Source: an uncultured Schlesneria sp.
GTDB taxonomy: Bacteria; Planctomycetota; Planctomycetia; Planctomycetales; Planctomycetaceae
DNA length: 62,097 nucleotides
Direction of reading: 5' to 3'
Assembly (NCBI GenBank): GCA_903858935.1
Contig: CAIOKO010000047.1
Location: 1-62,097, forward strand
Each line of letters starts with the position of its first letter. Position 1 is the stretch's first letter. A program made the translations under genes and the position numbers. Below, piece by piece: positions 8,334-62,097 of the stretch. A model generated the notes under the pieces. That model saw nothing but the letters and a program-made list of their open reading frames with translations, was not told the origin of the DNA and did not search any database.

Positions 8334-10745
8334 ATGGCCGGTAAAATTTCCGTCGAATGTCCTTCGTGTTTGGCAAAGCTGAATCTTGCGGACAGCAGCA
8401 AGCTTGGCAAGAAAATCCGCTGCCCGAAATGCACGGAGGTGTTCACACCCGAGGCATCGGACGACGACGAAGAGTTTGATGATGAAATCGAGGACGAGCC
8501 GAAGCGGGGGGCGAGCAAAAAGCCGTCTGTCGGCGGTGCGGCCGCGTCAAAGGGAGCCAAAAAGGGGGCGAAGAAGGGAGGGGCGTCCGGCGGCGGTTCC
8601 AACCTGCCTGTGATTATTGGCGCTGTGCTCGGATTGCTCGCACTGGTGGGAGGCGGGTTATTCTTTTCCGGGATCTTCAACAGTAAACCGTTGCCAGCGC
8701 CACCAGCCATGCAGCCCATGGCGGCCGCTCCGCCACCTGTTCATGCCGCGCCACCGCCCCCGCCTCAAATCTCGCCTGCCGAAAAAGTACTCGGGCTGCG
8801 CTGGATGCCTGCGGATACGGATATTCTGATTCACGCCAAAGTCGCGAACATTTGGCAAGCTCCGCTCTTGAAAGAGCCACTGAGCAATCCGTCGGTCGCA
8901 ACGGGACTGAAGGAATTCGAAAAGCAAACCGGAATGCTGCCGACTGACATTGAGAGCATTACGATTGGCATTGCCAATTTTACTGGATCGATCTTTCAGG
9001 CGAAGCTCGATAATGATATGTCGTCGGCCCCTGCTGCGGCACCGGCCGCAAGCGGCTTGGGAGCAGGCCCCCGCAATCCGATCAACATTCCGATTCCTAC
9101 AGTCCGTTACGTTGCGATCGTGAAAACAAAGAAGCCCTTCGACCTGAAATCGCTCGCTCAGGCTGATCCCAACACAAAACTGCAAGAGAAAAATGGCAAA
9201 AGCTACTTTGAAGTTCCAGCGATTCCGCAGAGGAGTCCTGCGAACGGAGGTTGGTCGCCGGATTCAACGACGCTGATTCTGGCCACTACGAAAGAACTCT
9301 TTGAAACCATGGAACGCGGCGAGACGATCGTGCCGCGAAAAGAATGGAGTATTGTCGATCATCAGCCACATCTGGTGATCGCCGCAGCCGTCCCGACAGC
9401 TATGGAAAGCATCAAGGCAAGTGCGGCCAAATACTCAGGAACAACACTTCCAGATGCCAATGTGTGGTTGTTCGAAGCCAACGAAAAGTACGCGTTTCAG
9501 TCGGCCTTCGTTGGATTGACCGTCAAAGGGGGATTCGACTTACAGGCTTCCTCACTCAGTGGTACGGACGAAGGAGCAAAAAAAACTAAAGAAGTGATGG
9601 AAAAACAAATCGCCGATGTTCGATCGATGTTCGATGGGTTCAAGGTGGCGGCACCGCCGGTCATCGCAGAACTGGGCGAAATGTTGCTCGCAAACCTGAA
9701 AATCGAAGAACGAGGGCGCATCGTAAAATTGACGACAACCGTTCCCGATTCGGCTCAGGAAAAGCTAGAACAATTGCCGGCCATCGTAATGATGATGGCG
9801 ATGACGGGTGGCTTCGCCGGATTACCCGGTGGTCCACCGATGGGTGCCCCGCCGAATTTTGCCGGTAGCCCCGGATCAATTCCGATGAATCAGGCTTTTA
9901 AGACCGCTGCCACGATTTCGTTGCCAGGGGAAACGGAATCCGTTGAACCTTCGACGGTCGAAGGATTACCTGAAGGGCTGTCGCTGACCGCGAAAGCCGC
10001 TTGGAGTTCATTGCCCGCGACACCGACACCAGATGGAAAGCTGACGGAGACCATCGAAATTCTGATTGATGTAACAGGCGATGATCTGGAATCAATCTGC
10101 GCCGCCACGGGAGTCACTTCCAAAACACTAACAATCGGCAGCAGCTCACTGAAGAAGTCGAAGCGGACGCTACCTGGTGGTGTTGACGCCCAGAAGACAT
10201 TCCTGGCATTCGATGCGGATAACAGTTTGCCCGGCGAGCATCCTCCAGAAACACTTCGCGTGCGATTGGCCGTTGATGCACCCCAGAATTTGCCCGCAAA
10301 AATCGATGTTCTTGAGGGATCGTTTAAAATCCTGACTGCAGGAAAATCGCAAGAACTGACAATTGAAAACGTCCCTCAAAGGGCAAAAACTCCGTTGAAC
10401 GAACCGGAATTCAAAGCCGGGGGAGTGAAGCTGATCAGAGGTCCGAAAGATGTTGTCCCTCAGACGTTGAAACTTCAATGTGGTGAGGATTTCTCACTGG
10501 GCAGAGTACGCGGGACGCCAGGTGATGTTCTCAGTTTCACCGAAGTAGAAAAAGGGGCGACGATCCAGCGGATTTATGCAAATCAGCCCGACGGCAAATT
10601 TCCCGAGGAATTCGAAATCGCATTCAAGCTTCATTCTGATCTGAAAGAGCAGAAAGTTACTTTTCGCTTCGAAAATGTCCCGCTGCCCACCGCTGAAACA
10701 AAGCCGGGATTGCAGCAACAGCAAGTCCCCTTGCAGCCACAATGA
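8334..10745 (+). CDS. Large zinc-ribbon, membrane-anchored protein of unknown function
   Basis: About 803 residues from the ATG at 8334; a GTG four codons upstream is a weaker start. The N-terminus is an MJ0042-type zinc ribbon (CPSC, about 17 residues, CPKC). It is followed by an acidic then Lys/Gly-rich linker, one membrane helix (LPVIIGAVLGLLALVGGGLF, about 90-114), a Pro/Ala linker, and an exported domain of about 650 residues. Cytoplasmic zinc ribbon plus periplasmic bulk is a recurring planctomycete layout. The exported part has no motif I can name; DILIHAKVANIW near its start recalls planctomycete proteins of unknown role. Confidence 0.8.
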   Translation: MAGKISVECPSCLAKLNLADSSKLGKKIRCPKCTEVFTPEASDDDEEFDDEIEDEPKRGASKKPSVGGAAASKGAKKGAKKGGASGGGSNLPVIIGAVLGLLALVGGGLFFSGIFNSKPLPAPPAMQPMAAAPPPVHAAPPPPPQISPAEKVLGLRWMPADTDILIHAKVANIWQAPLLKEPLSNPSVATGLKEFEKQTGMLPTDIESITIGIANFTGSIFQAKLDNDMSSAPAAAPAASGLGAGPRNPINIPIPTVRYVAIVKTKKPFDLKSLAQADPNTKLQEKNGKSYFEVPAIPQRSPANGGWSPDSTTLILATTKELFETMERGETIVPRKEWSIVDHQPHLVIAAAVPTAMESIKASAAKYSGTTLPDANVWLFEANEKYAFQSAFVGLTVKGGFDLQASSLSGTDEGAKKTKEVMEKQIADVRSMFDGFKVAAPPVIAELGEMLLANLKIEERGRIVKLTTTVPDSAQEKLEQLPAIVMMMAMTGGFAGLPGGPPMGAPPNFAGSPGSIPMNQAFKTAATISLPGETESVEPSTVEGLPEGLSLTAKAAWSSLPATPTPDGKLTETIEILIDVTGDDLESICAATGVTSKTLTIGSSSLKKSKRTLPGGVDAQKTFLAFDADNSLPGEHPPETLRVRLAVDAPQNLPAKIDVLEGSFKILTAGKSQELTIENVPQRAKTPLNEPEFKAGGVKLIRGPKDVVPQTLKLQCGEDFSLGRVRGTPGDVLSFTEVEKGATIQRIYANQPDGKFPEEFEIAFKLHSDLKEQKVTFRFENVPLPTAETKPGLQQQQVPLQPQ

Positions 10746-11255
10746 TGATGCGAGTTATTAATTCCTGGCAAAGCCAATGGCTTGAGCACTGTGACACAAT
10801 GTTTGAGGATTAACGTCAGGCCAAAGTAGTCATCATCACTCCGCGTGAAGAGCCTTATTCGAGACCTCTGTAACAAATGTTACCGAGGTCTCGAAGCATT
10901 TTGGCAGGATGCAAGTCGTCGCTACACCTTCCATCCGCAGACGGACGTATTACGCTAAGGCTGGAAGCTTCCACTACTAACAGTCGCATTTCTGCGTGAT
11001 AAGCCTGACTGAATTATTTTCGAGTCGTCAAATCACATTGCAGGGCCGTCAACACCAAAAATCAGGCATTATTCTCGACATAAATGCTTTGCTCGACAGA
11101 CGAAAATCATTCTTCCCAATTTCTTAATCAACTATTCATCACAGCTAAATAACTCTTCCTATTATTACCGCTCAGGAAACTGTTGCGAAGGGAGTCCTCA
11201 ATTTAATGGCTCCGGCTTGCTTCGTAACTTCAGGCCGTGAGAAAGGACACTCCCC
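10746..11255. other. 510-base intergenic region with a long palindrome
   Basis: No convincing gene. It holds a palindrome at 10859-10896 (separate entry). The stretch at about 10824-10855 (AAAGTAGTCATCATCACTCC and on) weakly resembles the left arm of the inverted repeat at 35343, suggesting a degraded dispersed repeat. The last part, with AAAGGA at 11241, carries the ribosome-binding site of the next gene. Confidence 0.6.
10859..10896. repeat. 38-base near-perfect palindrome
   Basis: TTCGAGACCTC pairs with GAGGTCTCGAA, and inside it GTAACA pairs with TGTTAC around a two-base centre; only one position on each side (T/C) fails to pair. It lies 114 bases after the stop of the zinc-ribbon protein and lacks a T run. 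Either a transcript-end hairpin or a dispersed palindrome; an operator cannot be excluded. Confidence 0.7.
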
Positions 11256-12185
11256 ATGCCTGCTCAATATCCGCGAGGAGCGACAAGACGTTGCTTCCGG
11301 ACCCTCTTCGTCAGTGACGTCCATCTTGGCTGTCGATACGCCCAGGCTGAAAAATTCCTGGCGTTTCTCGAGCAAGTGCAACCAGAACACATCTATATCG
11401 TAGGCGACTTTATCGACGGCTGGCGACTTTGCCGACGTTGGCATTGGCAACCAGTTTACGTGCGGATTCTTCAGCGGCTGGTCCAGTTGGCCTCGCAGGG
11501 GACTCAGGTTTATTACGCTCCCGGTAACCATGACGAATTCCTTCGCGATTATTTACATGACTTTGGCCTGGTTACAGTCGCAGATCAATTTATCCATCGA
11601 ACCGCCGATGGCCGGCGATTTGTCGTGCTGCACGGCGACCAGTTTGACGACGTCGAACGTGGTGCCAAATGGCTGTCAGTCGTCGGGGCGTTTGCTTATG
11701 ACCGGCTGGTATCTGCGAATGGCATGATCAATCAAGTTCGTCGCTGCTTCAACATGAAAGACTGGCGGTTCAGTTCATCCGTGAAGGTGTGGGCCAAGCA
11801 GGCTGTTCAGTTCATCAGCGATTTTGAAGAGCGCCTTGTCTGTCACGCGAAAGAGCTGGAATGTGACGGAGTCATCTGTGGACATATCCATGTTCCCCGG
11901 GTCGAGAATCTCGGTGACATTACATACTGCAATACAGGGGATTGGGTCGAACACTGTACGGCATTGGTGGAACATGAAACCGGCGAATTGGAACTGGTTG
12001 ACTGGTCACATGACAGTATGCAACTGCCAGTTCGAATTCGGGAAAGATCATTAGAAATGGCCGCGCTGTGTGATACCACGCCAGTCGTCGAACATGTCGC
12101 TGCTTCGGTTCTCGTTCCTGCCGATCAGCGGATGAATACACACAAATCACTGACACCTGCGAATCTTGCAGGGTTGCTTCGATAG
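11256..12185 (+). CDS. LpxH-like metallophosphoesterase (UDP-2,3-diacylglucosamine diphosphatase family)
   Basis: A 309-residue calcineurin-type phosphoesterase. Metal-binding motifs in order: SDVHLG, GDFIDGW, GNHDEFLRDY, HGDQFDD and GHIHVPR. This set fits the LpxH branch, which cleaves UDP-diacylglucosamine in lipid A synthesis. The protein is longer than E. coli LpxH (about 240), so the substrate may be a different envelope nucleotide-sugar lipid. AAAGGA lies about 9 bases before the ATG. It starts a same-strand run with a glycosyltransferase and a radical SAM gene, which suggests a shared envelope-glycolipid pathway (inference). Confidence 0.85.
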   Translation: MPAQYPRGATRRCFRTLFVSDVHLGCRYAQAEKFLAFLEQVQPEHIYIVGDFIDGWRLCRRWHWQPVYVRILQRLVQLASQGTQVYYAPGNHDEFLRDYLHDFGLVTVADQFIHRTADGRRFVVLHGDQFDDVERGAKWLSVVGAFAYDRLVSANGMINQVRRCFNMKDWRFSSSVKVWAKQAVQFISDFEERLVCHAKELECDGVICGHIHVPRVENLGDITYCNTGDWVEHCTALVEHETGELELVDWSHDSMQLPVRIRERSLEMAALCDTTPVVEHVAASVLVPADQRMNTHKSLTPANLAGLLR

Positions 12186-55273: not shown

Positions 55274-55987
55274 TCATTGCAGTTCGAAGTCAATGACCAG
55301 CGGTAAATGGTCAGAGGCATCACGGGCAAGGCGGCGCCTGGCAACATGAGCCGTCAATTGCGAGAATGAGCCGCGCCAGAATGCCTTGTCGAGCGAACCC
55401 AGAGGAAGATAGGCAGGAAACGAACGGAATCGGGAGATCGGTGTTGTTAACTGGCGAAAGCCATGAACTTCAAATGGTCCGCTCGCTAAAGTGTTCCGCC
55501 AGTCGTTGAAGTCCCCGACGATCAGTTGTGGTAAATCGCGGCCTTCGCGAAGCAGGTGGTGTTCCAGCAACCGACGTGTCTGCCAGTGACGTTCTCGTTC
55601 TCCCAGTCCCAGGTGCCAGTTCACGATGTGAACCGCACCATCAGGTGTGTCGATGATCGCCATCTGGGAACCGCGTGGTTTTTTCGTCTGCCGCGTCAAT
55701 GAGATCTGATGATGGCTAAGGAACGGCCAGCGTGAAAGCAGCAGATTGCCGTAACCACCGGTTTGAACGTGAACGTTGAGCTGGTACATCCGATGTTCGA
55801 GTTTCAGGCGCTCGGCGAATAGTTCTGGCTGGTTATCGAACCGGCTGCGGCGAACGTTGCGATCCACTTCCTGCAGGCAGACGATGTCTGGCGATTCTGT
55901 AGCAATGACGTCGATAACGCGTTGCAGCCGGTACCGCCGGTCACGTCCACCAATCCCCTTGTGAATATTGTAGCTCAGCAGTCTCAA
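55274..55987 (-). CDS. Endonuclease/exonuclease/phosphatase family protein
   Basis: A 237-residue member of the EEP fold: RLLSYNIHKGIGGRDRRY, CLQEVDRNVRRSRF, VHIVNWHLGLGERERHW, PQLIVGDFNDWRN (catalytic Asp/Asn) and RDASDHLPLVIDFEL (catalytic His). No signal peptide. The nearest families are bacterial EEP phosphatases/nucleases with unassigned substrates (for example YbhP-like). All catalytic residues are present. It is followed at its 3' end by the repeat-bearing gap. Confidence 0.88.
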   Translation of the reverse strand: MRLLSYNIHKGIGGRDRRYRLQRVIDVIATESPDIVCLQEVDRNVRRSRFDNQPELFAERLKLEHRMYQLNVHVQTGGYGNLLLSRWPFLSHHQISLTRQTKKPRGSQMAIIDTPDGAVHIVNWHLGLGERERHWQTRRLLEHHLLREGRDLPQLIVGDFNDWRNTLASGPFEVHGFRQLTTPISRFRSFPAYLPLGSLDKAFWRGSFSQLTAHVARRRLARDASDHLPLVIDFELQ

Positions 55988-56299
55988 AGGATGAGCCCCA
56001 TTCGACGGTTGTGAGGGTTAGGCATTCCACGGTTCCCAGGAGCTTTTGCTTTTACCCAATTCTCACAAAGATCGATAGCGAGTCACCGGGGGTATTAGCG
56101 GCGCCACAAGGTGCTTACCATACAAGAAACTCAAATGTCACTTCCCTGGCGGTGTGGCGTTCGACATCATCGCATGCTTGCGCTGCTTTTGGGCATCTCT
56201 GTAATACACTGAAAACAGAATCGTCCTGCGGGAGTGTCGCGCATTCCAAGACGATCTAAAGGAATACGTCAACAACAGGACATTCTGAGGATTCTGAAA
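55988..56299. other. 312-base gap between divergent genes
   Basis: No gene or RNA identified. It must hold the promoters of the EEP gene and of the 56300 gene; no clear motifs. Confidence 0.4.
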
Positions 56300-56770
56300 A
56301 TGAGGTCCACGATTCGTCGGATGTTATTGCTTGTGACGCTGATGTTCTGGCAGGGCGGTTTTATGTTTTATGGAGGCGTGGTTGTTCCTGTGGGAGCAAA
56401 AATTCTTGGATCAGACACAAAGCAAGGCTTCGTGACGCAAGCCGTGACGAATTATCTAAACGTTGCAGGGGCCGTTTGTCTGATAGTTTGGCTCGAGCAT
56501 TTATGGCATTACCGGCGAAGCGGCGTTTCATGGGCGGAGTGGTCGGTTTGGTCGCTGATAGCGATCTCGCTTGTCGGACTCGCCGGGATCCATCGTCAGA
56601 TGGACCAGATTCTCGTTTCAGAAACGACAAGTGTATCTGATCCAAAACAGTTTCATCTGCTGCACAAGATGTATATCGGGACCAGTTCTCTTCAGTGGCT
56701 CGCAAGCCTGTTTCTGTTGTTCCTGGCATTACGGACTTGGAACAAACAGGATCTCAAAAGGCCTTGTTAA
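56300..56770 (+). CDS. Four-helix membrane protein of unknown function
   Basis: 156 residues from the ATG at 56300, with GAGG nine bases upstream. Membrane helices near 6-30, 50-70, 80-98 and 128-148; short polar loops, with WLEHLWHYRRSG and a His-containing HRQMDQ segment. It may be an unrecognised DUF4149/DUF420-type small membrane protein. The charged end is NKQDLKRPC. Function unknown. Confidence 0.65.
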   Translation: MRSTIRRMLLLVTLMFWQGGFMFYGGVVVPVGAKILGSDTKQGFVTQAVTNYLNVAGAVCLIVWLEHLWHYRRSGVSWAEWSVWSLIAISLVGLAGIHRQMDQILVSETTSVSDPKQFHLLHKMYIGTSSLQWLASLFLLFLALRTWNKQDLKRPC

Positions 56771-56949
56771 CCGATGTCGATACGCAAAAACCTTGTTCCA
56801 GTGTGAAACGAGGTGGTTCATGCGGAGAGAAATTTAAAAACTGCCGAAAAATTCCTGATTCCCTGTTTTTTCGTTCGTTTTTCGCGGTCACCTGACACGA
56901 CTTGTTTTTCAGGCATCATGAGATATAGTTTCGTTTCGGTTTTGCCGCC

Positions 56950-57039
56950 GGAGAGGTGGCTGAGTGGCCGAAAGCACCGCTTTGCTAAAGCGGCGTCTGG
57001 GTATTCCCCGGACCCAGGGTTCGAATCCCTGCCTCTCCG
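56950..57039 (+). tRNA. tRNA-Ser (anticodon GCT)
   Basis: Acceptor stem GGAGAGG/CCTCTCC with discriminator G; the anticodon arm is CCGCT-TTGCTAA-AGCGG with anticodon GCT at 56984-56986, reading AGC/AGU. A long variable arm (CTGGGTATTCCCCGG) and the T arm GGGTTCGAATCCC are present. CCA is not encoded. It is a class II tRNA with normal features, read directly from the sequence. A rho-independent terminator follows. Confidence 0.95.
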
Positions 57040-57043
57040 CATC

Positions 57044-57082
57044 AACCGTCGAGAAAGCCCCTGTTTTCTCGACGGTTTTTTC
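57044..57082 (+). terminator. Rho-independent terminator after tRNA-Ser
   Basis: AACCGTCGAGAAA pairs perfectly with TTTCTCGACGGTT around an eight-base loop, followed by a T-rich tail (TTTTTTCG). It ends the tRNA transcript, 5 bases past the tRNA end. Confidence 0.9.
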
Positions 57083-57413
57083 GTTTCCAAAGCTTGACCT
57101 TCTTCGCAATAGATGGAAGTTTCGACTGACTGATCATTTCCGATGTCAAAGTGCAGCAGCAATTCAGCCACTCAGGAAATGACACATCGGTTTTTGTCGC
57201 GACATCTTTCAATTGGTCTGGTTGCCGCTGATGGTTCTGAACTTCATACTTCGAGCAGTCAATTCGACATGAATATCCGTCAATTTTTTCGCGGAATTCA
57301 GCATGCAAGAATGATTTTCCCCTAGACTTGAGCTTGCTATGCGGTAATGTTTTCGTGATTAGGCGACATCGCGTACGGTATTTACTACAGCACCGAGTTG
57401 TATTGGGGTCCAC
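57083..57413. promoter_or_regulatory. 331-base leader of the H-NOX operon
   Basis: No gene. It must hold the operon promoter. A GG-N10-GC arrangement at 57293-57306 (CGGAATTCAGCATGCAA) weakly resembles a sigma-54 -24/-12 element, and the operon encodes a sigma-54 activator, but the match to TGGCAC/TTGC is poor, so this is a lead only. Confidence 0.3.
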
Positions 57414-57953
57414 ATGAAGGGTGTTGTTTTCACCGAATTCTTAGAGTTGGTCGAGTCCAATTTCGGAATGGAAGTGGCCGACCGGGTTCAAACAAAAGGA
57501 TTTCCAGAAGATACTGGATTTACCTCAGTGGGGACCTATGATCACCAGATCCTTATTAGCTTGGTCGTCGAATTAAGCCAGGAAACCGGTGTCCCTGTTC
57601 GTGACCTCGTTCTCGCCTTCGGCAAACACCTGTTTCACAGTTTTAGCAGGAATTTCCCTCATACACTGGATGGGGTCAATAATTCGATTGATTTCTTGCA
57701 AAAAGTTGAGGGTGTCATTCACGGTGAGGTACAGAAGCTTTATCCCGATGCGGAATTACCGAATTTCAGCTTTTCCCCGTCGCCGGAAGGGCACTTTCAA
57801 ATGGAATATATTTCAGCTCGCCCCTTCGCGGATCTGGCAGAAGGCTTGATTGGGGCTACGATTGAACATTTCGGTGACGATTTGAGATGTGTACGTACAG
57901 ATCTTGACGGGCCACCGGGAACCCATGCTCTCTTTAAACTTTGTCCGAAGTAG
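57414..57953 (+). CDS. hnoX: H-NOX heme sensor protein (nitric oxide sensing)
   Basis: A 179-residue stand-alone H-NOX (HNOB) domain. The start MKGVVFTEFLE matches the family. Proximal heme ligand His103 lies in VEGVIHGEVQKLYPD. The propionate-binding YxSxR motif is EYISAR (Tyr132, Ser134, Arg136). The residue at the distal Tyr position of O2-binding H-NOX (Tyr140 in Thermoanaerobacter) is Leu141, so NO selectivity is predicted. It sits first in a four-gene unit with a histidine kinase and two response regulators; NO-bound H-NOX would control that kinase (known pattern in Shewanella and Vibrio). Confidence 0.92.
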   Translation: MKGVVFTEFLELVESNFGMEVADRVQTKGFPEDTGFTSVGTYDHQILISLVVELSQETGVPVRDLVLAFGKHLFHSFSRNFPHTLDGVNNSIDFLQKVEGVIHGEVQKLYPDAELPNFSFSPSPEGHFQMEYISARPFADLAEGLIGATIEHFGDDLRCVRTDLDGPPGTHALFKLCPK

Positions 57954-59353
57954 TAACTGAAAGGGTTGATCCGGAAGATATTCCCACAACGATTTCTCGA
58001 GAAACGCTCGAACGTTTTTTTCGCCGCGAACGGAGTGCGAGAAAGCAAGCCGAACAGTTGCTGGAAGAAAAAAGCCGGCAGCTTTACCGGACCAATCAGG
58101 ATCTCTTGAAGTCGACTCAGGCACTGGCAGATGAAGTCCAGCGCAGCAAGGTGATTTTTGAAACAGCTGCCGAAGGGATCATTCTGTTTGATCAGCTGGG
58201 CCACATTGAACTTGTTAATCCTGCCGCCAAGCGTATTTTTGAATTGACTGACGACGACTGCGTGAATCTTAATATCAACGACATCCTTCCGTTGACTGAT
58301 GGCCAAAACTCCGACTCGTCTATTTGTTTCTACACCGAACCTCTTTTTCTCATGGGTGATGACCACGAGATTGTTGGTAGGAAAAAGACAGGAGGAGAGT
58401 TTCCCGCCGAATTTGTCGTCGCTGAATTCAGTCATAACGGACGAGTCGCCTACAGCGGGGTCGTGCGGGATTTAACGCGACGAAAATTTCTGGAATCGCG
58501 ACTGGCTCAAGCAGAACGACTGGAGTCCGTCGGTCAGTTAGCAGCCGGGGTCGCGCACGAAATCAATACCCCGATTCAGTTCGTCAGCGAAAATACGCGA
58601 TTCTTGAAAACATCGTTTCAATCGCTATTGGAGATTTTTTCATCCACGAATCAATTGCTGGAAAAGTGTGAGGAGATTGCGGATCTGAATCCGTGGGTTT
58701 CGCAAGTCCATGAAGCGATTGAACGAGCCGATCTATCCTTTCTTCTTTCCGAAATCCCGTTGTCGATTGATCAGACACTGGAAGGAACGAACACCGTTGC
58801 CAGAATTGTCCGGGCCTTGAATGTCTTTTCGCATCCTGGCACGACCGAATTTCAAAAAGTTGATCTCAATAGTGAATTGGAAAGCACGCTGACTGTTTCG
58901 AAAAACGAATGGAAGTACGTGGCGGAAGTTGAAACCGACTTTGCGCCGAATCTTCCCCGCGTCATGTGCTTGCCCGGCGAAATGAATCAGGTCTTTCTCA
59001 ATCTTATTATTAATGCTGTTCACGCAATCCAGGGTCGGAAATCGGATGGACTCGGCAAGATCACGGTTCGAACACGTCGTGAATCAGATCGTGTGATCGT
59101 CGATATTTCGGACAACGGAACAGGAATACCTGAGGCGATACGCGGTCGTATCTTCGACCCGTTTTTTACGACAAAAGGAGTTGGAAAGGGGACCGGGCAA
59201 GGTCTTACCATCTGTTATAACGTTGTGGAATCACACCGTGGAAAATTGACATTTGATACCATCGAAGGGGAAGGGACGACATTTCACGTCGAGCTATTGC
59301 TGGATCCAAGGCCAAAGGGAACTGCAGTGACTGAAATCAACGAAGAAGCATGA
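57941..59353 (+). CDS. hnoK: PAS histidine kinase partner of H-NOX
   Basis: A 470-residue kinase without membrane segments. A TTG start at 57941 is forced: a TAA lies just upstream in frame and no ATG or GTG occurs near it; it overlaps the H-NOX stop by 13 bases. Domains: a coiled coil (20-75), PAS (68-180, [20 protein letters not shown]), H-box [11 protein letters not shown] (His206), N-box [11 protein letters not shown]1/[21 protein letters not shown] and G2 [10 protein letters not shown]. It is active by sequence. It is soluble, which fits a sensor controlled by direct contact with H-NOX rather than by an external signal. Confidence 0.93.
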
Positions 59354-60327
59354 ATAAAAAAGTTCTGATTGTCGACGACGAATTAAACTTATTACGATCA
59401 CTGCAACGCAACTTGAGAGGGAAATTTGACTTGACGATTGCCGAAGGGGGCGTCGCAGGGATGACTCAAATCCTGGAAGGGGGACCATTCGGTGCGATTG
59501 TAAGTGACTTGCGAATGCCGGAAATTGACGGTCTGCAAGTCTTGGGATTAGCACGTATCGTCACGCCAGACACGTTTCGTGTCATGCTGACTGGCAACGT
59601 AAGCAGCCATATTGCTCCAGCAGGGCCGAATCAGATGCCTTGGTTCCAATACGTCAGCAAGCCTTGCACGACTAAGGGTTTGTGTTCGGTGCTCAAGGAT
59701 GGGCTTGATCGGTATTCCATTTCAAGCTCCCAAAGACGACTGAAATCAAAAACGGCCACTGAAGAGAACGCGCGACAGATTTCCGAGAAATTTCGTGGAA
59801 GTGTTATGCGTTGCCAACGCTTGCGCCAATTAGCCAGGCGCTTGGGAGATTTGATGAATCTCAATGAAACATGGCAGTACGAACTGGCTGGGATGTTGTC
59901 ACAGTTGGGCAGTCTTGTCCCTGCGGCGGATGCAGAACACCGTGAAAAGACCGTCGATCACGACGAAGCGTTTCTAAGAATGCAGGCAGGATTAACGAGC
60001 CGAATGATTCGTGAAATTCCTCGATTCGAACAGATCGCAGACATGGTGGGGCATCAATACACCGACAAATTCGAACCCTCCGTACCAGATTGCATTCGAA
60101 AGGGGGCACGAATTCTACGCATGTTGATGGATTTCGACGTTCTGACACGAACATTTTCTGAAGTCGAGGCGATTCATAAAATGAAAGAACGGTCCAATTG
60201 GTACGGTGAACCGTTGTTTCTGAGTTTCTCGGAATTAGTTTCGGGAGAACCAATGCGTCGATCAAATATTCCGAGTCATCCGAATAAATTAGAAGCATTC
60301 AGTGTTTCGCGTTCAATAACGAAGTAG
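59350..60327 (+). CDS. Response regulator with degenerate HD-GYP output domain
   Basis: A 325-residue protein: a receiver (1-120) with acceptor Asp53, Thr81 and Lys104, then an HD-GYP-like helical domain (about 140-310). At the position where active enzymes have HD of LLHDIGK, it reads MLSQLGSL (Ser184, Gln185), and no GYP motif is evident in the corresponding loop. It should therefore not hydrolyse c-di-GMP. This parallels HnoD of Shewanella H-NOX systems, a degenerate HD-GYP regulator. The start overlaps the kinase stop by 4 bases (ATGA). Confidence 0.85.
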   Translation: MNKKVLIVDDELNLLRSLQRNLRGKFDLTIAEGGVAGMTQILEGGPFGAIVSDLRMPEIDGLQVLGLARIVTPDTFRVMLTGNVSSHIAPAGPNQMPWFQYVSKPCTTKGLCSVLKDGLDRYSISSSQRRLKSKTATEENARQISEKFRGSVMRCQRLRQLARRLGDLMNLNETWQYELAGMLSQLGSLVPAADAEHREKTVDHDEAFLRMQAGLTSRMIREIPRFEQIADMVGHQYTDKFEPSVPDCIRKGARILRMLMDFDVLTRTFSEVEAIHKMKERSNWYGEPLFLSFSELVSGEPMRRSNIPSHPNKLEAFSVSRSITK

Positions 60328-60334
60328 ATCATCT

Positions 60335-61993
60335 ATGGCCTTCTCAAAAACCTCTGAAAATAAGCGGTCGAACATTATGGACGCGGAAGAGGTAACGACT
60401 TCGCACGCCGAAAGAGGTTCGATCGTTGCCATTGACGATGATCCGATGACGTTGCGTTTGCTTCAGGGATTGTTGAAAGGTTCGGAATATCGAATTCAGG
60501 TTTCCAGCGACGCATCGTCAGGACTGAAGCTGATCGATGCCTCAACATCCGTCGTCCTCGTTGACCTTCAAATGCCTAAAGTCAGCGGATTTGATTGCTT
60601 GCGCTATATTCGAAAAAACCACCCCCAGGTGCAGGTGATTGTTGTCACCGGTTCCAGTCAAACCTCAGATGCTGTGGAAGCGATGAAGGCCGGGGCATTT
60701 CAGTATGTGACCAAGCCATTCGATCCGAAACAGTTGCGAGTTTATGTCGACAAAGCCATGCAGGCTTCTAAAACCGCAAATGAAAACCTGGAGCTTCGTG
60801 AATCCCACAGCCACAACTTGCCAGTGGAAGTTCCTCAAATTGTCGGTGATGTCAATGACTGGCTGATGACCAGAATCGATTCGCTGGCCAAGCTCGATTC
60901 AACGGTCTTCATTGGGGGAGAAAGTGGTACAGGAAAATCCACAATCGCGAGGATGATTCATCAAAAAAGTAATCGTGCGAGTAAGCCCTTTGTCTCGATT
61001 AATTGTGCGTCTTTGCCCCGTGACCTGCTCACCTCAGAACTGTTTGGTCACACCAAGGGGGCATTCACAGGGGCCGTTAGTGATCGCGCTGGTCATGCAG
61101 AGGTCGCGAACGGTGGAACGTTGTTTCTCGACGAAATCGGTGACCTTCCGCTCGAGTTACAGCCGAAGCTGTTAACATTCCTTCAAGACAGAACAATCCA
61201 GCGACTGGGGTCGTCGGAAGTTCGGAAAGTGGATGTCCGTTTGATCGTGGCAACGCACCGGAACCTGGCGGAAATGTGCCGTGAACAGGCATTTCGCCAA
61301 GACCTCTTTTTCCGTTTAATGGTGTTGAGTCTTGAGCTTCCACCGTTGCGGCATCGGCTTTCGGAATTACCGATGATGGCGGAAGCGGCGTTGACTCGAA
61401 TCTGTAAGCGAATGGGCATGCCTCCCAAACGTCTCACGGCGAACGGACTTGGCGTATTATTGAAACATAGCTGGCCGGGGAATATCCGCGAACTGGAAAA
61501 CGTCCTGGAGCGTGCTGCTGCATTTTCGCCAGGTTCGGAAATTGGTCCTGACGAATTGGTGTTCACTAACATGTTTTTGAGTCGCCCGAGTTCAACGCGC
61601 GATTCCGACGCATCGGCGATGCCCCCTTCGCGACCCTTCGCCGTACCTCGGGCAGACAATTCAACAAGCACCTCAGGAAACGCGTTTGATCGCGATCGAG
61701 GGAGATATGACGAGCAACCGCCGGTTTTTGAGAACCATACGTTTCCGGCGAATGGTGTTCCCGTGCCGAAAACTCAAGCCGATCCCGTTTTCACGCTGGC
61801 GGGCAAGTCACTCGATGCGATCGAACGAGAAGCAATTTTGCAGACATTAGCGGTTTGTAATGGCAACAAGGCAAAAAGTGCCCGTATGCTGGGGATCAGC
61901 GAAAAGAGTATTTACAACAAAATGCGTCGACTTAACGTAGAATGGCCACCGACGCCAGGTACGATGGACCCCAAAAACTGGACCAGGAAATAA
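60335..61993 (+). CDS. Sigma-54-dependent response regulator (NtrC family)
   Basis: A 552-residue protein: receiver (about 29-145) with acceptor Asp77 in VVLVDLQMPK and Lys127; AAA+ domain with Walker A GESGTGKS (195-202), GAFTGA sigma-54 contact loop (242-247), Walker B GGTLFLDEIGD; and a Fis-type HTH (NGNKAKSARMLGISEKSIYN, about 505-535). Between is a low-complexity Ser/Pro linker. It starts 7 bases after the HD-GYP gene. The last codons (MDPKNWTRK) lie inside an IS end, see separate entry. Confidence 0.93.
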   Translation: MAFSKTSENKRSNIMDAEEVTTSHAERGSIVAIDDDPMTLRLLQGLLKGSEYRIQVSSDASSGLKLIDASTSVVLVDLQMPKVSGFDCLRYIRKNHPQVQVIVVTGSSQTSDAVEAMKAGAFQYVTKPFDPKQLRVYVDKAMQASKTANENLELRESHSHNLPVEVPQIVGDVNDWLMTRIDSLAKLDSTVFIGGESGTGKSTIARMIHQKSNRASKPFVSINCASLPRDLLTSELFGHTKGAFTGAVSDRAGHAEVANGGTLFLDEIGDLPLELQPKLLTFLQDRTIQRLGSSEVRKVDVRLIVATHRNLAEMCREQAFRQDLFFRLMVLSLELPPLRHRLSELPMMAEAALTRICKRMGMPPKRLTANGLGVLLKHSWPGNIRELENVLERAAAFSPGSEIGPDELVFTNMFLSRPSSTRDSDASAMPPSRPFAVPRADNSTSTSGNAFDRDRGRYDEQPPVFENHTFPANGVPVPKTQADPVFTLAGKSLDAIEREAILQTLAVCNGNKAKSARMLGISEKSIYNKMRRLNVEWPPTPGTMDPKNWTRK

Positions 61994-62097
61994 GATAGAA
62001 TTTCAGTGGTTCAGTTTTGGAGGGGAAGATGCCCGGTAAGCGTAAGATTCGGAGCGGGAGTTTCAAAGCGAAGGTTGCGATCGCAGCGTTGCGAGAG
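61965..62097 (+). mobile_element. Left end of an IS3-family insertion sequence (truncated by window edge)
   Basis: TGGACCCCAAAAACTGGACC at 61965-61984 has the look of an IS3-family left end, and the element's OrfA begins at 62029 with MPGKRKIRSGSFKAKVAIAA, a transposase start typical of the family. The element lies across the 3' end of the sigma-54 regulator gene, so that gene's final codons and TAA come from IS DNA. The exact outer boundary and target duplication cannot be set, because the right end lies beyond the window. Confidence 0.7.
62029..62097 (+). CDS. IS3-family transposase OrfA, partial (5' end)
   Basis: The first 23 codons of a transposase: MPGKRKIRSGSFKAKVAIAA then LRE, with GGAGGGGAAG just before the ATG. 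The basic start and FKAKVALAAL-type helix are typical of the HTH_Tnp_1 N-terminus of IS3 OrfA. The gene continues past the window. OrfB is not seen. Confidence 0.8.
   Translation, partial: MPGKRKIRSGSFKAKVAIAALRE

What the first reader, a model, noticed from the sequence alone, without database searches (positions are those of the whole stretch)
57414..61993. A four-gene H-NOX / histidine kinase / degenerate HD-GYP / sigma-54 regulator operon in a planctomycete
The genes overlap by 13 and 4 bases and then sit 7 bases apart, so they are one transcript. Sensor, kinase and two response regulators of different output types are all present. In known H-NOX systems of Shewanella and Vibrio the kinase feeds an EAL enzyme, an HTH regulator and a degenerate HD-GYP protein. 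Here no EAL is present in the window, and an NtrC-type sigma-54 activator replaces the HTH regulator. This is a new combination for nitric-oxide signalling, with transcription through sigma-54 as the likely output.
Basis: partly seen in the sequence, partly recalled or inferred. Interest (0 to 1): 0.85.

Follow-up and report, generated by a model that had tools for sequence, protein, structure and literature searches.

The report
NO-sensing operon tied to envelope genes
A planctomycete operon that probably senses nitric oxide turns out to be the front half of a longer, conserved gene cluster whose back half looks like a cell-surface sugar-building machine, so it may let these bacteria change their surface when they meet nitric oxide; the parts are known kinds, but this assembly is new to us.

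Summary
The four genes are real and at the stated places: H-NOX, PAS-histidine kinase, receiver plus degenerate HD domain, NtrC-type sigma-54 activator. That the operon has only four genes is an artefact of where the contig ends. An IS sits in the last codons of the NtrC gene (left end 61960) and the contig stops inside it. The rest lies on contig C149, and uninterrupted in three same-genus genomes: an HPt protein, a HlyD-like adaptor, a membrane protein and a ~1210-aa PMT-type glycosyltransferase, with a receiver and an LPG-synthase-type gene on the other strand. Within the genus, H-NOX and HlyD occur in the same 4 of 15 genomes. Outside it, 3 of 5 NtrC-HlyD clusters fetched carry a linked H-NOX. 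Module-linked H-NOX form one clade. Five genomes with more distant HlyD clusters, lacking the NtrC-HPt pair, have no H-NOX. Best reading: an NO-responsive phosphorelay acting through HPt and a sigma-54 activator on surface-glycan genes. Against it: no sigma-54 promoter could be shown. New variant of a known kind.

The parts
57300..57413 (+). upstream region of the operon with two stretches nearly unchanged in 4 of 4 same-genus genomes (around GCGGTAATGTTTTCG and GTATTTACTACAG); promoter/operator candidate, type unknown
   Evidence: no sigma-54 -24/-12 site scoring 8 or more in 55901-62097
57414..57953 (+). H-NOX (HNOB), 179 aa; H103, P116, Y132/S134/R136 and L141 invariant in 8 of 8 aligned
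57941..59353 (+). histidine kinase (PAS, H-box AHEINTP, HATPase), no receiver domain and no membrane domain recognised; 470 aa, TTG start
59350..60327 (+). response regulator: receiver (D53, T81, K104) plus degenerate HD domain (SQ where HD is expected, placed by eye against the recalled motif)
60335..61993 (+). NtrC-type sigma-54 activator: receiver, AAA+ with GAFTGA, Fis-type HTH; last residues (after PPTPGT) come from the IS
61960..62097 (+). left end of an insertion sequence (11 matches in the genome, this one included), inserted in the last codons of the NtrC gene with a 3-base AGG duplication; the other flank is contig C149

Best explanation
The window shows the sensory front of one conserved module. 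H-NOX binds NO and changes the activity of the kinase encoded next to it. The kinase passes phosphate to receivers encoded in the same cluster. Flow reaches the NtrC-type activator either directly or, more likely, through a receiver (the HD-domain regulator or the stand-alone receiver) and the HPt protein encoded just downstream. The activator then works with RpoN on promoters of surface-glycan genes: the HlyD-like adaptor, the membrane protein, the PMT-type glycosyltransferase and their partners, or unlinked genes. The degenerate HD regulator is a non-enzymatic side branch or relay receiver. Shown: gene content, intact signature residues, conservation of the module, one-clade H-NOX. Inferred: NO as ligand, direction of control, phosphate path, promoter targets, surface-glycan function.
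For: Intact signatures in every part. Order H-NOX-HK-RR/HD-NtrC-HPt-HlyD-membrane protein-GT in three same-genus genomes, and in the window's own genome once the IS is recognised. H-NOX and HlyD occur in the same 4 of 15 genus genomes. The genome-contig scan with HlyD gave 8 loci, three of them the same-genus ones: NtrC beside HlyD in 8 of 8, HPt in 7 of 8, H-NOX on the stretch in 6 of 8, one cut by a contig end. In the class, 10 of 397 genomes have HlyD at E 1e-40 or better: 5 with NtrC-HPt, all 5 with H-NOX; 5 without the NtrC-HPt pair beside HlyD, 0 of 5 with H-NOX. Module-linked H-NOX form one clade, support 97/84, 96% of bootstrap trees. Locus L166 lacks both HPt and the stand-alone receiver, as expected if those two work together. 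RpoN present. Similar logic is established in Vibrio.
Against: No convincing sigma-54 promoter: of 49 module gene starts in the window and nine loci, 7 had a hit of 8 or more within 400 bases upstream; only one lay at the same place in two orthologous loci (9.3, inside the HPt gene, L160 and L144; not in L161 or L164), and the strongest (17.0, before the LPG-synthase-type gene on C149) lies inside an open frame. The kinase has no receiver, so a four-step relay needs a separate one. The kinase tree does not make the module kinases one clade (2 changes). Two of the 8 HlyD loci (L162, L166) show no H-NOX on the stretch held. The NtrC-HPt gap is 52-56 bases in the relatives, and the HD regulator-NtrC gap 245 in G505, so internal promoters are possible. 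Some clusters without the NtrC-HPt pair have such parts not far off: L179 a GAFTGA activator about 4 kb from HlyD on the other strand, L177 a hybrid kinase with an HPt-like part, L176 a receiver/AAA protein at its edge. In the window's genome an IS now separates regulators from envelope genes. The envelope function rests on weak or general family matches.
Confidence: 0.48

Rival explanations
1. Branched two-component system without a relay: the kinase phosphorylates the HD regulator and the NtrC regulator directly, and the HPt belongs to another pathway or acts as a phosphate sink.
For: The kinase has no receiver; NtrC lies 7 bases after the HD regulator in three of the four same-genus genomes, the window's included; the NtrC-HPt gap is 52-56 bases in the three relatives.
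Against: HPt follows NtrC in 8 of the 9 NtrC-HlyD loci examined (the 8 and the own genome, there after the IS), and L166 lacks HPt and the stand-alone receiver together.
Confidence: 0.28
2. Mainly a c-di-GMP-type output, as in Shewanella and Vibrio cholerae: the degenerate HD regulator acts as an allosteric partner of a phosphodiesterase elsewhere, and sigma-54 control is minor or is autoregulation.
For: Best NCBIfam match of the regulator is NosR (104.7 bits, below its cut-off 400); degenerate HD; no sigma-54 site shown at the envelope genes.
Against: No EAL, GGDEF or HD-GYP motif in the window's longer frames (the rest of the genome was not searched); no relative of the HD domain was detected beside the module outside the genus, whereas NtrC is kept in 8 of 8 module loci.
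Confidence: 0.16
3. The H-NOX responds to oxygen or redox state rather than NO.
For: H-NOX domains are described as NO or oxygen sensors, and heme-free V. cholerae H-NOX responds to oxidation (start of the abstract of PMC7108781 in the listing).
Against: Leu at 141, the position of the oxygen-stabilising Tyr140 of the Thermoanaerobacter protein by recalled numbering, is invariant in the 8 aligned H-NOX.
Confidence: 0.08

Closest known systems
Vibrio fischeri HnoX-HahK-SypF/LuxU-SypG-syp
   Same: H-NOX encoded next to its kinase; HPt relay to a sigma-54-dependent response regulator; output is a surface polysaccharide locus (PMC12369376 passages; SypG as sigma-54-dependent from a reference title in PMC3843225)
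   Different: HahK has its own receiver (D506) and its HPt partners are SypF and LuxU; the kinase here has no receiver, the HPt is a single-domain protein in the cluster, an extra degenerate HD regulator is present, and sensor, relay and envelope genes form one cluster
Vibrio harveyi / V. parahaemolyticus H-NOX-HqsK-LuxU
   Same: H-NOX-controlled kinase feeding an HPt (PMC8738867 passages); LuxO after LuxU is a sigma-54-dependent regulator (stated for V. fischeri, PMC3843225 passages)
   Different: merges with quorum sensing; the HPt here reaches only 19.7 bits against the LuxU cut-off of 140
Shewanella oneidensis / V. cholerae HnoK-HnoB-HnoC-HnoD
   Different: no EAL regulator seen here; a full sigma-54 activator where Shewanella has the repressor HnoC; HPt present
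NosP-NosK-NosR (FIST sensor) operons
   Same: kinase with an H-E-x-x-T/N motif and a receiver-degenerate-HD regulator (PMC12570481 passages); best NCBIfam match of the HD regulator is NosR
   Different: sensor is H-NOX, not FIST; score far below the NosR cut-off; sigma-54 arm and HPt added
PEP-CTERM-box response regulator (TIGR02915)
   Same: best NCBIfam match of the NtrC protein, 366 bits
   Different: below its cut-off of 502.6; a PEP-CTERM kinase or exosortase was not looked for

Membership tests
H-NOX (HNOB, PF07700) | profile match above the curated cut-off | tested here: met
   117 vs 25.5 bits
H-NOX (HNOB, PF07700) | proximal His and Y-x-S-x-R heme motif | tested here: met
   H103, Y132, S134, R136 invariant in 8 of 8 aligned; aligned to solved H-NOX structures; role of the residues recalled
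H-NOX (HNOB, PF07700) | binds heme and NO | not testable with these tools
   needs purified protein
NtrC-type sigma-54 activator | receiver + AAA+ with GAFTGA + Fis HTH, with rpoN in the genome | tested here: met
NtrC-type sigma-54 activator | -24/-12 promoters at target genes | tested here: inconclusive
   simple recalled matrix; 7 of 49 gene starts with a hit of 8 or more within 400 bases, none convincing; no genome-wide scan
Catalytic HD-GYP phosphodiesterase | HD and GYP motifs | tested here: not met
   SQ (3) or TQ (1) in place of HD in 4 of 4 same-genus copies; HD pair also absent in the 7 more distant homologues aligned; no HD-GYP motif in the window's long frames
NosR (NF053512) | score above the curated cut-off 400 | tested here: not met
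   104.7 bits
NosP-NosK-NosR system | FIST-domain sensor next to the kinase | tested here: not met
   the gene before the kinase is HNOB
LuxU/SypF-type H-NOX phosphorelay | HPt with its active-site His in the pathway's gene cluster | tested here: met
   PF01627 33.5 bits, cut-off 24.6, in G034; A-H invariant in 8 of 8; on C149 in the own genome
LuxU/SypF-type H-NOX phosphorelay | hybrid kinase with its own receiver | tested here: not met
   no Response_reg in the kinase
LuxU equivalog (NF041948) | score above cut-off 140 | tested here: not met
   19.7 bits

The most novel reading that the evidence does not exclude
A self-contained NO-to-sigma-54 phosphorelay (H-NOX, kinase, receiver, HPt, NtrC-type activator) built into one planctomycete cluster with the surface-glycan genes it controls, found in Schlesneria and in Pirellulaceae, and arrived at independently of the scattered Vibrio HnoX-HahK-SypF-SypG-syp pathway. 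In one Schlesneria-like genome an IS stands between sensor and effector genes, a natural uncoupling experiment.
Probability: 0.33. Interest if true: 0.7.

Novelty: new variant of a known kind. Interest (0 to 1): 0.52.

Why it matters
If right, NO sensing would be tied by gene order to surface-glycan genes in a phylum for which our searches gave no title or abstract on H-NOX signalling (no paper holds both terms; 39 papers, 15 listed, none read; 6 listed, none read). The same circuit logic as in squid-symbiotic Vibrio (H-NOX, kinase, HPt, sigma-54 activator, polysaccharide) would have arisen in a second lineage. Sensor, relay and presumed effector sit in a few consecutive genes, so the path could be rebuilt in a laboratory strain and tested.

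Tried and rejected
Sigma-54 promoter scan with a simple matrix (consensus and weights recalled): no hit at 8 or more in window 55901-62097. Over 49 module gene starts in the window and nine loci, 7 had a hit of 8 or more within 400 bases; the strongest, on C149, lies inside an open frame running in from the contig end, so rejected. AlphaFold models of the HD regulator (mean pLDDT 40) and of the ~484-aa membrane protein (57) were too poor to search with; only the helical C-terminal part of the latter was fair, and its TPR_2 match is below cut-off (11.8 vs 27 bits). A 23.8-bit profile match of that protein to an 87-residue stretch of Shiga-type toxin chains was judged chance and not followed. 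The first neighbourhood survey by single-sequence phmmer showed no H-NOX in 20 of 57 stretches and was replaced by a profile survey. The kinase tree did not give one module clade. Paper searches combining H-NOX with HD-GYP, HnoK, sigma54, Planctomycetes, gene neighborhood and NtrC, one for HnoC, one for planctomycete NO and kinase terms, and one for Schlesneria with nitric oxide listed no title or abstract start describing this cluster; the library is open-licence only and I looked for terms inside four papers.
Full report
1. What is there. Pfam names them H-NOX, PAS-histidine kinase, receiver plus HD_5, and receiver plus sigma-54 AAA+ plus Fis HTH. Signature residues: H-NOX H103, P116, Y132/S134/R136 (solved H-NOX structures match at up to 128 bits); kinase H-box AHEINTP; receiver D, T and K in both regulators; GAFTGA in the activator, the only such motif in the window's 74 frames of 150 aa or more. 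At H-NOX position 141, which by recalled numbering is that of the oxygen-stabilising Tyr140, all 8 aligned proteins have Leu, which points to NO rather than oxygen. The third gene has SQ where HD is expected, and the seven more distant planctomycete homologues aligned also lack the HD pair (position judged by eye). Its best curated match is the NO-related regulator NosR at 104.7 bits, below the 400 cut-off.

2. The operon is longer than the window shows. The window is contig C47, 62097 bases, ending in an IS with 11 matches in the genome. The IS left end is at 61960, inside the last codons of the NtrC gene. Contig C149 carries the other flank: the same AGG triplet, a right end with 24 of 34 matching inverted-repeat bases, then the original gene end. 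Joining the flanks reads PPTPGTHEA-stop, as in relatives (PPTSGTHEA, PPSPGMHEA, PPSPGMHEV); with the IS the protein ends PPTPGTMDPKNWTRK. The HTH (residues 493-532) is untouched. The end of C149 matched none of the ten other IS stretches held, which stop soon after the left end, so the junction rests on the inverted repeat, the AGG duplication and the restored frame. C149 goes on with HPt, HlyD-like, membrane protein and glycosyltransferase, and carries the receiver and the LPG-synthase-type gene on the other strand.

3. Relatives. Spacing: overlaps of 13-22 and 4 bases, then 7 (245 in G505), 52-56, then overlaps by the starts listed. H-NOX is in 4 of 15 genus genomes, HlyD in the same 4 of 15. 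The HD regulator matches in 20 of 150 family genomes at 1e-15, but at 65% identity or more only in those four. The NtrC protein matches at 1e-120 in 2 of 294 phylum genomes, the own and G362.

4. Wider. A genome-contig scan with the HlyD alignment gave 8 loci, three of them the same-genus ones. Of 8: NtrC beside HlyD in 8, HPt in 7, stand-alone or N-terminal receiver in 7, H-NOX on the stretch in 6 (L160, L161, L164, L163, L167, and L165 cut by the contig end). L163 and L167 have H-NOX on the opposite strand to NtrC. In L163, which is G362, the NtrC frame is split in two and the receiver gene is a receiver-HDOD fusion. L162 shows no H-NOX, but a kinase that pairs with that of L163 at 100/99. 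L166 lacks HPt, receiver and H-NOX on the stretch. In the class, 10 of 397 genomes have HlyD at 1e-40. Five are the module type and all five have H-NOX. The other five (G528, G538, G579, G585, G643) lack the NtrC-HPt pair beside HlyD and have no H-NOX, against 7 of the other 75 genomes in that search. In three of these five, regulator-like genes stand further off: L179 a GAFTGA activator about 4 kb away, L177 a hybrid kinase with an HPt-like part, L176 a receiver/AAA protein at its edge. The ten are not independent.

5. Trees. In a 56-row H-NOX tree (58 found; the partial L165 and L008, the same gene as L052, left out; L017 and L187 gave no long enough match) the six module H-NOX are one clade, 97/84, in 96% of bootstrap trees. 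In an 18-row kinase tree the six module kinases fall in a nine-row set behind a 100/99 branch, with L162 and two others, and need 2 changes; several rows are long-branched.

6. How usual is it? H-NOX is in 17 of 101 genomes of the family sample and 42 of 392 of the phylum sample. I fetched 57 neighbourhoods; some weak and second hits were left out. Within 6 kb, 33 of 57 had a kinase like the window's and 3 of 57 a GAFTGA-type activator: two are the module (L052, L062), the third is L064. In 20 of the 57 the stretch is shorter than 6 kb on a side.

7. Envelope half. HlyD-like: HlyD_D23 39.7 bits; the ~484-aa protein: no family above cut-off, helical at low confidence; the ~1210-aa protein: PMT 25.4 bits (cut-off 22.7); the convergent gene: LPG_synthase_TM 63.2 bits. 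A family-2 glycosyltransferase stands nearby in L167 and a GT4-type one in L166. A surface-glycan role is inference.

8. Mechanism and rivals. The best account is an NO-dependent kinase feeding a sigma-54 activator of surface-glycan genes, with HPt as relay. The kinase lacks a receiver, so the relay needs the HD regulator or the stand-alone receiver. The latter travels with HPt: both present in 7 of 8 loci, both absent in L166. RpoN is present. No sigma-54 promoter could be shown: 7 of 49 module gene starts had a hit of 8 or more within 400 bases, none convincing. This is the main gap.

9. Known systems. H-NOX signalling through HPt to sigma-54 regulators is established in Vibrio: HnoX-HahK acting through SypF and LuxU on SypG (PMC12369376, passages), SypG sigma-54-dependent (a reference title in PMC3843225), the H-NOX-regulated kinase phosphorylating LuxU (PMC8738867, passages), LuxO sigma-54-dependent (PMC3843225, passages). 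What our paper searches did not list is the assembly in one cluster with envelope genes in planctomycetes. Hence: observation confirmed, interpretation partly supported, new variant of a known kind.

Noticed in passing
window 61960-62097 and L144 (C149) 9225-9341: An IS interrupts the last codons of the NtrC gene and separates the regulators from HPt and the envelope genes in this genome; the three same-genus relatives with the cluster are uninterrupted.
   Followed up: yes
L176, L177, L178, L179, L180: More distant HlyD/membrane-protein clusters (LPG-synthase-type gene in 4 of 5, ~1170-aa glycosyltransferase in 3 of 5) without the NtrC-HPt pair and without H-NOX in the genome: a planctomycete envelope cluster I could not name.
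   Followed up: partly
L064 (G202) 8582-11744: Another planctomycete H-NOX stands near a 733-aa GAFTGA-type AAA+ protein, a possible second H-NOX/sigma-54 pairing.
   Followed up: no
L130 9098-11709: A same-genus genome without H-NOX (G487) has a kinase, an HPt-like protein and a receiver-degenerate-HD protein in a row, a similar set with another sensor.
   Followed up: no
L062/L163: The NtrC frame is split into a receiver ORF and an AAA+/HTH ORF; real break or assembly error unknown.
   Followed up: no
window 57300-57413: Two blocks upstream of H-NOX are almost unchanged in four same-genus genomes; no known site type recognised.
   Followed up: partly
window 56950-57040: tRNA-Ser (GCT) gene just upstream of the operon.
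   Followed up: no
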